Notes under the pieces: generated by a model
Database searches by the model: none
What the model was told of the DNA's origin: nothing
Seen by the model: only the letters and a program-made list of their open reading frames with translations
Assembly (NCBI GenBank): GCA_012838715.1
Contig: DUOR01000123.1
Coordinates: 1-10,270, forward strand
Direction of reading: 5' to 3'
From: Actinomycetales bacterium
Lineage (GTDB): Bacteria; Actinomycetota; Actinomycetes; Mycobacteriales; Mycobacteriaceae
Length of the DNA stretch: 10,270 nucleotides
Translations under genes and position numbers: made by a program
Shown: positions 7,458 to 10,248 of the stretch, piece by piece
Layout: every line of letters starts with the position of its first letter
Numbering within the stretch: position 1 is the first letter of the stretch

Positions 7458-9092
7458 TCAGAGGCCCCCTTCCTCGGGTTCGTCAGCCACGGTCAACGCG
7501 CCGCCATCGCCGAGATGCAGCCACGTATCGATACCCAGCCTGCGCAGGAACGCATAGTCGTGGCTCACCACGACCACGGCGCCGCGATAGGCCACCAAGG
7601 CACCGACCACTTCATCGATGCTGCTTAAGTCGAGGTTGTTCGTCGGCTCGTCGAGAACCAGCAGATGGTGGGCGGGCTCCGCGAGAAGCAACCGCGCCAG
7701 AGCTACCCGGAATCGCTCGCCACCGGACAACGCGGCGACGCGCTTGCCGACGTCGTCGCCGGTGAACAGGAAGCGGGCGAGATTCGCCCGCACGCGCTGC
7801 GGGTCCGCGGACGGTACCGCCTGGAGCACGCTTTCGATGACGGTCACGCTTTCATCGAGGTGATCGAGGCGCTGCGGAAGGTACCCAATCCGGTTGGTGT
7901 GAGGCACCAACCGGGGATACGTCTCCGATTCGGGATGCCACAGGGTTTCCAGCAACCGCGTTTTGCCGGCTCCATTCCTGCCGATCAACGCGACCCGCTC
8001 CGGCCCGAACATAAGGTGGGCCGGGCCGTCGGCGGCGCGCCACTCGAGAATGCGGCGGCCGGCCGGCACATCCGGGTCGGGGAGATCGATCCGGATACTC
8101 TCCTGCCTCCGCACGCGGGTCTCCCGGGCTTTCAGGGCCCGCTCGGCGTCTTCGACGGCCCGCTGGTGCTCGCCGCGGAGTTTTCCGGCGGAGACCTGCG
8201 CTTCGCTGCGCCGCAGATTCATGATTATCTTCGGCCGCCGTTTATTGCGGTAGTCGGTCTTCGCGTACGACTTTCGGCGGGAGAGCTTCGTCTCGGCCTC
8301 GATGCGCTGGCGCTTTTCCGCGTTCAGCGCTTGTTCGGCGGTGCGCACCGCTTGTTCGGCCGCGGCCTGCTCCCGGGCGAGGTGCTCGCGGTATTCGCCA
8401 TAGGAACCACCGAACACGGAGATCGTGTGATTCCGCAGTTCGGCGATGGAATCCATGCGTTCCAACAGTTCGGTGTCATGGCTGACGACGACGAGGGTGC
8501 CTTTCCAACCGTCGACGATGTCCCCGAGCCGGAGCCGTGCTTCACGATCCAGGTTATTCGTCGGCTCGTCGAGAATCGCGATGGTCGCCCCCGACAATTT
8601 GATGCCGATGAGGGCGGTGAGCACCACCTCTCCGCCCGAGAGCGTGCCGACGGTGTGGCTCAATCCGATTCCCGCCAAGCCGGCGGAATCGAGGAGTGCC
8701 CGCGCCCGGGGCCCGATGTCCCAATCGTCGCCGATCACCTGGAAATGTTCGGGTGCCGCGTCCCCGTGTTCGATGGCGGTCAGGGCATCGAGTTTTCCTT
8801 CGATACCCAACAACTGGGCCACAGTCGTCTCCGCGTCGAGGATGAGTTGCTGCGGAAGGTACGCCACGTCACCGGTGCAGGTGATGGTGCCCGCGGTGGG
8901 TACGAGATCACCCAGAATCAACCGGATCAACGTGGACTTGCCGGCTCCGTTATCGCCGATGAGCCCGGTCCGGCCGACGCCGATTACCGCATCGGTGGGA
9001 TGGAGGATTTCGGCGCCGTCGGGCCAGGAGAATGACACGTCGGCCAACGTGATGGCGGGCGTGATGGGGGTGGAAGTGGTTGAGGTAGACAT
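7458..9092 (-). CDS. ABC-F family ATPase (ribosome-associated; possible antibiotic resistance protein)
   Basis: A 544-residue soluble protein with two ABC ATPase domains and no membrane segments, which marks ABC-F proteins; these bind the ribosomal E site and either tune translation or displace peptidyl-transferase and tunnel drugs. Domain 1 has Walker [10 protein letters not shown] (47-55), signature LSGGE (151-155), Walker B ILDEP with Glu176 and switch His205. The linker (about 232-335) is a long charged K/R/E-rich helical hairpin, the P-site tRNA interaction region. Domain 2 has GRNGAGKT (371-378), LSGGE (455-459), LVLDEP with Glu482, and SHD. The first signature continues [11 protein letters not shown] instead of the usual R-x-x-L-A, a variation I associate with an actinobacterial ABC-F clade. 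The ATG at 9092 has GAAGGAG at 5-nt spacing. The structured leader with a short ORF favours drug-inducible resistance over a housekeeping role. Confidence 0.93.
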
Positions 9093-9147
9093 GAGGGCTC
9101 CTTCGATGTTCAGCGGAACGCGCTGAACGGGCCCTCGGAAGGCGCCC
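9093..9147 (-). promoter_or_regulatory. candidate translational attenuator sequestering the ABC-F ribosome-binding site
   Basis: On the minus-strand RNA the segment GGGCGCCUUC (9147-9138) can pair with GAAGGAGCCC (9104-9095), which contains the whole Shine-Dalgarno of the ABC-F gene: nine pairs, one mismatch. Nested inside is a perfect 8-bp stem, GUUCAGCG (9128-9121) with CGCUGAAC (9115-9108), and a 5-nt loop. An alternative 6-bp pairing, GAGGGC (9136-9131) with GCCCUC (9098-9093), would cover the bases between Shine-Dalgarno and ATG. The leader ORF stop is 5 nt before the first arm. Its last bases CGCGCUGA (9160-9153) can also pair with UCAGCGCG (9126-9119), a competing fold. The pairings are visible; control is inferred. 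Confidence 0.6.
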
Positions 9148-9152
9148 CTGCG

Positions 9153-9191
9153 TCAGCGCGGAAAAATGCGGTGAACGATCGGGTTGAGCAC
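9153..9191 (-). CDS. 12-codon leader peptide upstream of the ABC-F gene
   Basis: GTG at 9191-9189 opens a 12-codon frame, MLNPIVHRIFPR, ending at TGA (9155-9153). It has a strong Shine-Dalgarno, GAGGA at 9202-9198, 6 nt before the GTG, and lies about 30 nt after the predicted transcription start. The frame ends 5 nt before the arm that can mask the ABC-F ribosome site, the classic geometry of an attenuator leader. The final Phe-Pro-Arg is an X-Pro-X sequence, a class known to arrest ribosomes in the presence of macrolides. If a ribosome stalled with the Pro codon in the P site, its front edge would reach the first bases of the masking arm. It is too short for homology support, so the call rests on ribosome site, position and structure. 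Confidence 0.55.
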   Translation of the reverse strand: MLNPIVHRIFPR

Positions 9192-9227
9192 TGTCTTTCC
9201 TCACCTCGACGACAAAACAGGAGGCCA

Positions 9228-9256
9228 ACCGTAGCCCCCTCGCCGAATGGGCGCAA
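9228..9256 (-). promoter_or_regulatory. promoter of the ABC-F leader transcript
   Basis: On the minus strand a -35-like TTGCGC (9256-9251) is separated by exactly 17 nt from a -10 TACGGT (9233-9228). Transcription would start near 9221, giving a leader of about 130 nt before the ABC-F ATG that contains the 12-codon ORF and the hairpins. I see no AT-rich block directly upstream of the -35 of the kind found at WhiB7-dependent promoters. Confidence 0.5.
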
Positions 9257-9302
9257 GAGCCGACGCCGAAAAAGTGTGTGCGGGCATCGGCCGGGAGAAA
9301 CG

Positions 9303-9329
9303 AAAAGGCCGCCCCACGAGGGGGCGGCC
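9303..9329 (-). terminator. intrinsic terminator of the RlmA-type methyltransferase gene
   Basis: A perfect 9-bp stem (GGCCGCCCC at 9307-9315 with GGGGCGGCC at 9321-9329) has a 5-nt loop, and on the minus strand is followed directly by TTTT (9306-9303). It lies 34 nt after the methyltransferase stop and upstream of the ABC-F promoter, so the two minus-strand genes are probably separate transcripts. Confidence 0.85.
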
Positions 9330-9363
9330 GTCGGCAAGCGGGAACGGGGCGGCTACGTGCAGG

Positions 9364-10248
9364 CTATGCGCCGACCTTCCCCAGTCGCGTCACGTACGCA
9401 CGGGCGGTGACCTCCATCTGCTCCGGCAGAGCGGCGATGCGCTCGGCCAGAACGTCCGGGTGGATGTGTCGGGCCGACGGGCTCATGCCGATCTGGGCGG
9501 CGATGGCGTCCTGGTCGAGGGTCATCGGGAACTCCACCAGCTCCGGCTCCCCCACGGGCGCCAGGTGCCCCTCGGCCTGGGCGATCATGCGCTCGACCTT
9601 GCCGCGCTCCACGTCGATGATGCCCAGCGGCTGGCGCAGCTCACCCAGGTGGCCGGTCGCGGCGGTGAGCACGACGACCTGGCCGCCCGGCTTGAGCACG
9701 CGGGCGAACTCCTCGGCGTTGCGCGGCGCGAAAATGACGGTGATGGCGTCGATGGAGTTGTCGCGGATGGGCAGGCGCGCCCACGCGTCGGCCACCACGG
9801 CGCCGACGCGCGGGTGGCACTTCGCCAGGTGCTTGGCCGCCGGGACGGAGACGTCGATGCCGACGCCGCGCGCGCCGTCCACCCCGTCGAGGGTGTGCGC
9901 CAGGTAGTAGCCGGTGCCGGCGCCGATCTCGAGGATGGCCGGGTTGGCCTCCTCGGCGACGTTCGCGTCGTCGAGGACGTCCTGCACGTTGCCGGTGACG
10001 GCCTCCACGAACGGGGCGTAATGGCCGCCGGAAAGGAAATCCTCGCGGGCGGCGATCATCTTCGCGTCGTCGCCGCTGTAACGCAGGCCGGCGCCGCCGG
10101 CGAGGGTGACGTACCCCTGCCGGGCCACGTCGTAGCTGTGGCCGGACTCCGATTTCACGGTCTGCCACTCGGAGTCCCCGCGCTCCAGCGGGGTGCCGTC
10201 GATGGGGTCGGCGAGCACGTCGATGACGTCGGCGAGCAACCTGTTCAC
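9364..10248 (-). CDS. RlmA-family 23S rRNA (guanine-N1)-methyltransferase-like protein
   Basis: A 294-residue SAM-dependent methyltransferase resembling RlmA(I)/RlmA(II) (RrmA, TlrB), which methylate N1 of G745 or G748 in 23S rRNA hairpin 35 at the exit tunnel. The N-terminal family block is clear: GHSYDVARQGYVTLAGG (36-52), GDDAKMIAAREDFLSGGHYAPF (59-80). The Rossmann domain has ILEIGAGTGYY (105-115), Asp132 after strand beta2, VADAWARLP (152-160) and APRNAEEFARVLKPGG (174-189), then MSPSARH (255-261), a TlrB-like motif. The zinc-finger cysteines of the family are missing: the CPxC position reads DPID and the third cysteine is also replaced, only the His of GH remaining. It may thus have altered RNA recognition or another substrate. 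Start GTG at 10248; GAGGA abuts it, too close for a ribosome site. Confidence 0.85.
   Translation of the reverse strand: MNRLLADVIDVLADPIDGTPLERGDSEWQTVKSESGHSYDVARQGYVTLAGGAGLRYSGDDAKMIAAREDFLSGGHYAPFVEAVTGNVQDVLDDANVAEEANPAILEIGAGTGYYLAHTLDGVDGARGVGIDVSVPAAKHLAKCHPRVGAVVADAWARLPIRDNSIDAITVIFAPRNAEEFARVLKPGGQVVVLTAATGHLGELRQPLGIIDVERGKVERMIAQAEGHLAPVGEPELVEFPMTLDQDAIAAQIGMSPSARHIHPDVLAERIAALPEQMEVTARAYVTRLGKVGA

What the first reader, a model, noticed from the sequence alone, without database searches (positions are those of the whole stretch)
9093..9256. Apparent drug-responsive translational attenuator in front of an ABC-F gene
Within 165 nt on the minus strand there is, in order: a 17-nt-spaced promoter; a 12-codon ORF with a well-placed Shine-Dalgarno; an anti-Shine-Dalgarno arm starting 5 nt after the ORF stop (9147-9138); an internal perfect 8-bp hairpin (9128-9121 with 9115-9108); and the ABC-F Shine-Dalgarno as the closing arm (9104-9095, 9 of 10 paired). 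A ribosome paused at the end of the short ORF would overlie the masking arm and free the ribosome site. Leader-peptide attenuation is established for erm and several resistance ABC-F genes, but I do not know this leader from any described system.
Basis: partly seen in the sequence, partly recalled or inferred. Interest (0 to 1): 0.75.

Follow-up and report, generated by a model that had tools for sequence, protein, structure and literature searches.

The report
Antibiotic-sensing RNA switch before ABC-F gene
In front of a ribosome-protection (ABC-F) gene of a Corynebacterium lie a tiny decoy gene and competing RNA hairpins, shared with several related bacterial families, that most likely keep the gene off until an antibiotic stalls ribosomes on the decoy.

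Summary
The window (ABC-F protein 99% identical to one named Corynebacterium xerosis) has a 12-codon uORF, an 8-bp hairpin and Shine-Dalgarno (SD)-masking arms. A covariance model found 10 non-training matches at E<=3.6e-6; all 10 lie directly before this ABC-F gene, three of which are interrupted. Covariation supports the masking hairpin.

Across clades the uORF peptide varies while this RNA stays. I infer that a drug-held ribosome at the uORF start leaves S2 free to pair with S3, keeping the SD open. The window is atypical: S1:S2 is degenerate and its equilibrium folds do not show the switch.

Relatives carry uORFs published for ARE5 genes (MLV; GDDDISG type). No Rfam match in 9000-9400; eight paper searches turned up no description in Corynebacterium. 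Drug response is untested.

The parts
9228..9256 (-). weak promoter-like pair TTGCGC (9256-9251), 17 nt, TACGGT (9233-9228)
   Evidence: 3 of 6 consensus letters in each hexamer; not reported by the sigma-70 scan
9153..9191 (-). uORF, 12 codons, MLNPIVHRIFPR, GTG start; GAGGAAAG at 9202-9195 before it
   Evidence: short ORF at the same place in the aligned leaders
9172..9181 (-). segment S1 (CGATCGTTCA). In most relatives S1 pairs with S2; in the window that pairing is degenerate and S1 pairs with S4 in the minimum-energy fold
9153..9160 (-). segment S2 (CGCGCTGA, includes the uORF stop), competitor of S4 for S3
   Evidence: register not shared with relatives
9131..9136 (-). anti-SD arm in the conserved register (GAGGGC), pairs with GCCCTC 9098-9093
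9119..9128 (-). segment S3, 5' arm of the hairpin
9108..9115 (-). segment S4, 3' arm of the hairpin
9098..9104 (-). ABC-F Shine-Dalgarno (GAAGGAG)
7458..9092 (-). ABC-F gene, 544 aa, ARE5-like

Best explanation
A translational attenuator that couples an ARE5-like ABC-F gene to ribosome stalling on a uORF. Four RNA segments compete. OFF: S3 pairs with S4 and the adjoining anti-SD pairs with the SD and start region, hiding the ABC-F start; in many relatives S1:S2 inside the uORF keeps S2 away from S3. ON: a ribosome held by a peptidyl-transferase-centre drug at or near the uORF start touches S1 and spares S2; S2 pairs with S3 as soon as S3 is transcribed, so S4 and the SD stay open. Shown by comparison: the segments, their pairing and (for S3:S4, anti-SD:SD and S1:S2) covariation, the spacing, and adjacency to this gene. 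Inferred: the direction of the switch, stalling at the start codon (carried over from published toeprints on Streptomyces ARE5 uORFs) and the drug class (lincosamide, streptogramin A, pleuromutilin). In the window S1:S2 is degenerate, so its OFF state may rest instead on S1:S4 plus pairing of the uORF's SD region with the ABC-F start region.
For: Relatives' leaders: anti-SD:SD plus S3:S4 15 double-change cells against 6.9 +/- 2.1, 0 of 500 shuffles (16 leaders); S1:S2 6 against 2.4, 8 of 500; whole modelled structure 46 against 16.3 +/- 3.3, 0 of 500 (23 leaders, alignment fitted to the model). S2:S3, left out of the model, keeps at least 6 of 8 pairs in 23 of 23; summed S2:S3 run length 191 against shuffled mean 122.6, maximum 139 of 300. 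Ten non-training model matches at E<=3.6e-6, ten of ten directly before this ABC-F gene. S2 is read in phase 0 in 8, phase 2 in 14 and lies beyond the stop in 1 of 23, so it is kept as RNA. S2 starts at +33 to +48, outside a ribosome at the start codon, while aligned S1 lies at +12 to +19. With a start-stalled ribosome, transcripts ending after S3 form S2:S3 with P 0.85-1.00 in 16 of 16. Holding S2:S3 opens the ABC-F start region relative to the free fold in 19 of 23. [quoted passage not shown]
Against: Full-length equilibrium folds return to S3:S4 after start stalling (P>=0.97) in 8 of 16, the window included; the window's free fold already favours S2:S3 (0.93) and S1:S2 scores 0. Without a ribosome the truncated transcript already forms S2:S3 (P>=0.95) in 7 of 16, so S1:S2 does not hold S2 in every leader. 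The ABC-F SD core stays about 0.25 unpaired at every stall position in the window. S2:S3 covariation is weak: 5 cells against 2.5, 37 of 500, since 4 of 8 pairs never vary. In 4 of 23 the start region is not more open with S2:S3 held. Two published relatives differ: are5sc is regulated at the transcript level, and in lmrC uORF2 translation is required to form the terminator. No expression data.
Confidence: 0.62

Rival explanations
1. One reading: a ribosome paused at the end of the uORF covers the anti-SD arm and frees the SD.
Against: That arm is not shared in register with relatives, and the conserved anti-SD starts 10-45 nt after the stop. A ribosome there would cover S2 and so favour S3:S4, that is OFF.
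Confidence: 0.12
2. An amino-acid or stalling-peptide sensor: arrest depends on specific codons or on the nascent peptide, as in erm or biosynthetic leaders.
For: A short ORF with its own SD; within single clades the peptide is nearly constant (MTGIxGLxPLSAR in L181-L184).
Against: Across clades the peptides share no motif I could see, and S2 is read in two phases or lies past the stop.
Confidence: 0.12
3. A transcriptional attenuator like lmrC or are5sc.
For: The gene's Streptomyces relatives use one.
Against: No terminator-like site at the S3:S4 hairpin in the window (9050-9400); S4 is followed by the SD, not a T-run. Rho-dependent termination is not excluded.
Confidence: 0.08
4. No drug-dependent switch: a structured 5' region that only sets a low translation rate.
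For: No expression data; weak promoter match; equilibrium folds do not show the switch in the window.
Against: The uORF, S2 and spacing recur in 23 leaders and the 10 best new model matches are all before this gene. Leaders before interrupted genes do not decide it: S2 has a changed base in L173 and L174 but is intact in L005 and L192.
Confidence: 0.06

Closest known systems
are5sc and tiaA leaders of Streptomyces coelicolor (ARE5 ABC-F; PMC12421871, section 7 and passages read)
   Same: Related ABC-F genes; very short uORFs; LSAP drugs hold the ribosome at the uORF start codon; [quoted passage not shown]
   Different: uORFs MLV and MVGDDDISG; terminator/antiterminator predicted there; no S1-S4 architecture with an SD-masking stem is described in the passages I saw.
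lmrC leader of Streptomyces lincolnensis (ARE5; PMC8546547, passages)
   Same: ARE5 gene, LSAP-induced ribosome-mediated attenuation, uORF overlapping the switching hairpin.
   Different: Acts by a mapped premature terminator; none is seen at the window's hairpin.
cplR leader of Clostridioides difficile (PMC10201436, passages)
   Same: ABC-F with a tiny uORF (MRI); SD accessibility controlled as well as termination, translational attenuation alone sufficing for repression.
   Different: Has an intrinsic terminator with a poly-U stretch; an ARE1 gene.
ermC-type translational attenuator (recalled, no call)
   Same: Four segments, 1:2 and 3:4 when off, 2:3 when on, with the SD next to segment 4.
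   Different: erm leaders depend on macrolide-dependent arrest at a specific peptide; here the peptide is not conserved, and the anti-SD is a separate arm before S3.

Membership tests
ARE5 ABC-F (LmrC, VarM, Are5sc, TiaA) | Two ABC-F ATPase domains with LSGGE and LDEPTNNLD motifs | tested here: met
   Sequence; motif columns invariant in 11 relatives
ARE5 ABC-F (LmrC, VarM, Are5sc, TiaA) | Falls in the ARE5 clade | tested here: inconclusive
   Groups with 10 Streptomyces proteins whose uORF is TTG CTC GTC TGA = MLV, the published are5sc uORF; no LmrC, Are5sc or TiaA reference sequence was compared
ARE5 ABC-F (LmrC, VarM, Are5sc, TiaA) | Confers lincosamide/streptogramin A/pleuromutilin resistance | not testable with these tools
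   -
Ribosomal-protection ABC-F (NCBIfam NF000355) | Score above the curated cut-off | tested here: not met
   303.9 bits against 380; best of 185 models listed
Ribosome-mediated translational attenuator | uORF with its own ribosome site upstream of the regulated gene | tested here: met
   some relatives show no clear SD before the uORF (L036, L037)
Ribosome-mediated translational attenuator | Mutually exclusive structures, one of which masks the SD | tested here: met
   S2:S3 against S3:S4 with anti-SD:SD, by prediction and comparison
Ribosome-mediated translational attenuator | Drug-dependent stalling and induction | not testable with these tools
   -
lmrC/are5sc-type transcriptional attenuator | Intrinsic terminator between uORF and gene | tested here: not met
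   Window 9050-9400 scan: two terminator-like sites, neither at the hairpin
erm-type leader peptide | Conserved stalling peptide | tested here: not met
   Peptides differ between clades, judged by eye
Any Rfam family | Match to a curated model | tested here: not met
   0 matches up to E=1 in window 9000-9400

The most novel reading that the evidence does not exclude
Actinobacterial ARE5-like genes share one sensing principle, a ribosome held at a uORF start codon whatever the peptide, but the RNA that reads it has been replaced several times at the same gene: the S1-S4 switch described here, the MLV type, the GDDDISG type, MLxxRVxA, and, in other corynebacteria, a 5-codon, probably leaderless uORF (MKIxS/A) whose own sequence is largely the antisense of the ABC-F ribosome site.
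Probability: 0.45. Interest if true: 0.68.

Novelty: new variant of a known kind. Interest (0 to 1): 0.55.

Why it matters
It would extend ABC-F attenuation from Firmicutes and Streptomyces to corynebacteria and other actinobacterial families, some with species that infect people. It offers a conserved switch that looks independent of the uORF peptide, and a set of leaders for testing how attenuators are rewired at one gene. If the model holds, tolerance to lincosamides or pleuromutilins in these genera could be inducible and be missed by uninduced tests (inference).

Tried and rejected
Equilibrium folding as proof of the switch: it does not show one in the window, so I rely on comparison. Stall-position scan in 7 leaders: uninformative for the window. 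Leader decay beside broken genes: I first took L173 and L174 as support; the check shows L005 and L192 also have ABC-F matches in two frames but an intact S2 (2 of 4), so I dropped it. tblastn on the 31 short fetched loci L054-L084 often hit by chance or not at all; of these I used only leaders found later by pattern. Model R1 over 71 loci of relatives (65 named, 6 unnamed) found at E<1e-6 only its three training members; next is L147 at 0.0014, so most distant ARE5-like genes lack this architecture or escape the model. In the genus 23 weaker rows (E 4.9e-5 to 0.0445) were not followed up. In the order sample 7 of 12 non-window hits (L185-L191, E 2.1e-4 to 0.0087) have no orthologue beside them; L187 has a weak ABC match. 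Leaders of the genus relatives outside the window's group were not modelled. Consensus fold of 10 MLxxRVxA leaders: no pair with both sides changed. Selection: L085, L113 and L086 entered the training set because I saw the motif in them among 16 upstream regions printed (80 loci fetched, a capped list); uORF starts were assigned by eye. S3:S4 in L003, L032 and L086 is aligned in a wrong register, so their S3:S4 numbers are too low.

Full report
What is there. The minus strand of the window carries, 5' to 3', a weak promoter-like pair (9256-9251, 9233-9228), a 12-codon uORF (9191-9153), an 8-bp hairpin (9128-9121/9115-9108), the ABC-F Shine-Dalgarno (9104-9098) and the ABC-F start at 9092. A terminator-like hairpin at 9329-9307 lies between it and the upstream gene. 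The closest protein in a large catalogue is 99% identical and named Corynebacterium xerosis.

The gene. 65 of 242 genomes of the genus hold a relative at E<=1e-80. In a tree of 86 proteins the window falls in a 27-row group (support 99), 21 rows of which I labelled, by pattern or eye, as having an S2-type leader. Outside that group, and on the same side of the tree, are 10 Streptomyces proteins labelled MLV; in 10 of 10 the uORF is TTG CTC GTC TGA, matching the published are5sc uORF (MLV, TTG start). Proteins with a GDDDISG-type uORF, as in the published tiaA leader (MVGDDDISG), lie in another clade (15 rows, with 3 unlabelled). I therefore call the gene ARE5-like. No LmrC, Are5sc or TiaA sequence was compared, and the best NCBIfam model is below its cut-off.

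The leader in relatives. I compared the window with 12 leaders from the genus and 3 from named genomes, the latter picked because the motif was visible. Four RNA segments recur: S1 near codons 5-7 of the uORF; S2 (GCGYTGA) at the uORF's 3' end; S3 and S4, the hairpin arms; with an anti-SD before S3 and the SD after S4. S2 mimics S4, so both compete for S3. On this MAFFT alignment anti-SD:SD plus S3:S4 has 15 double-change cells against 6.9 +/- 2.1 (0 of 500 shuffles), S1:S2 has 6 against 2.4 (8 of 500), and S2:S3 is paired in 96.0% of cells, slid controls 16-48%. The structures were read from members of the same alignment, which favours them.

Test on new sequences. A covariance model with S1:S2, anti-SD:SD and S3:S4, but not S2:S3, was run over 242 genus, 298 order and 394 class genomes, sets that overlap. 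In the genus, 15 matches at E<=2e-13 are the 13 training leaders and two new ones. The order sample gave five new ones and the class sample three more, all at E<=3.6e-6. Ten of these ten lie directly before this ABC-F gene; in L173, L174 and L192 the gene looks truncated or is matched in two frames. In the order sample 7 of 7 weaker hits lie beside no orthologue; weaker hits in the genus were not checked. Over 23 leaders (the three class-level ones not included) the modelled structure has 46 double-change cells against 16.3 +/- 3.3 (0 of 500; the alignment is fitted to the model). S2:S3 keeps at least 6 of 8 pairs in 23 of 23, and the summed run length is 191 against a shuffled mean of 122.6, maximum 139. 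Its covariation is weak (5 cells against 2.5, 37 of 500) because 4 of its pairs never vary. The three class-level leaders have GCGCTGAC at +36 and TCAGCG downstream.

Peptide or RNA. uORF peptides differ between clades (MLNPIVHRIFPR, MLIDDRHPAHCRALTSS, MKNLRVPAAAKQR, MIICDSHSAPLSARSVR, MTGIAGLAPLSAR, MWNRGRHFAQ). S2 is read in phase 0 in 8, phase 2 in 14, and lies beyond the stop in 1 of 23, so it is kept as RNA. S2 starts at +33 to +48 from the uORF start, the aligned S1 columns at +12 or +13: a ribosome held at the start codon would touch S1 and spare S2. Published toeprints show LSAP drugs stopping ribosomes at the start codons of the Streptomyces ARE5 uORFs.

How it probably works. With no drug, S3:S4 and anti-SD:SD hide the ABC-F start, and in part of the leaders S1:S2 occupies S2. 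With a start-stalled ribosome S2 is free and pairs with S3 before S4 is made: P (mean of the five best pairs) 0.85-1.00 in 16 of 16 truncated transcripts. Holding S2:S3 makes the ABC-F start region more open than the free fold in 19 of 23, mean 0.57 against 0.35 (related sequences, so the test there is not independent). Against this: truncated transcripts without a ribosome already form S2:S3 (P>=0.95) in 7 of 16; full-length equilibrium folds return to S3:S4 after stalling (P>=0.97) in 8 of 16, the window included; and the window's free fold favours S2:S3 with S1:S4 and uORF-SD:start-region pairs. The model needs co-transcriptional trapping, and the window may have a modified OFF state.

Relation to known systems. 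It works like an erm-type translational attenuator (recalled) with ARE5-style start-codon sensing (inferred). It is not an lmrC/are5sc-type terminator at this hairpin, nor an erm-type conserved stalling peptide. No Rfam family matches 9000-9400. Eight paper searches (listings), passages of PMC12421871, PMC8546547, PMC10201436, PMC6723617 and PMC10219788 and one section of PMC12421871 showed no description in Corynebacterium.

Verdict. A real, conserved attenuator, new to the sources I could search, of a known kind with its own architecture. My odds: element real about 0.95; switch as described about 0.6; drug class by inference only.

Noticed in passing
L015-L017, L059-L078 (15 distinct leaders): Other corynebacteria have a 5-codon uORF (MKIxS or MKISA), probably leaderless (a -10-like box 7-8 nt before the ATG, by eye), much of whose sequence pairs with the ABC-F SD and start in predicted folds: a minimal attenuator design.
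   Followed up: partly
L012-L014, L040-L051, L053, L056 (10 distinct leaders): A further group has MLIRRVFA/MLTFRVSA-type uORFs with GTGCTCA facing TGAGCAT at the ABC-F start; the consensus fold showed no pair changed on both sides.
   Followed up: partly
L036, L037, L085 (upstream of the uORF): The uORF ATG sits about 7-8 nt after a -10-like box with no clear SD, suggesting leaderless uORFs within the S2-type group (by eye).
   Followed up: no
L005, L173, L174, L192: Four relatives' ABC-F genes look truncated or are matched in two frames; S2 has a changed base in two and is intact in two, so decay of the switch with its gene is not shown. Sequencing errors not excluded.
   Followed up: partly
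window 9364-10248 (-): The next gene upstream resembles 23S rRNA guanine-N1 methyltransferases (MyrA, Erm(32), ChrB, RlmA models, below cut-off), another ribosome-drug-related family; a terminator-like hairpin (9329-9307) separates the two.
   Followed up: no
L181-L184: Four genomes of one other genus in the family share a nearly constant uORF MTGIxGLxPLSAR, possibly from close kinship.
   Followed up: no
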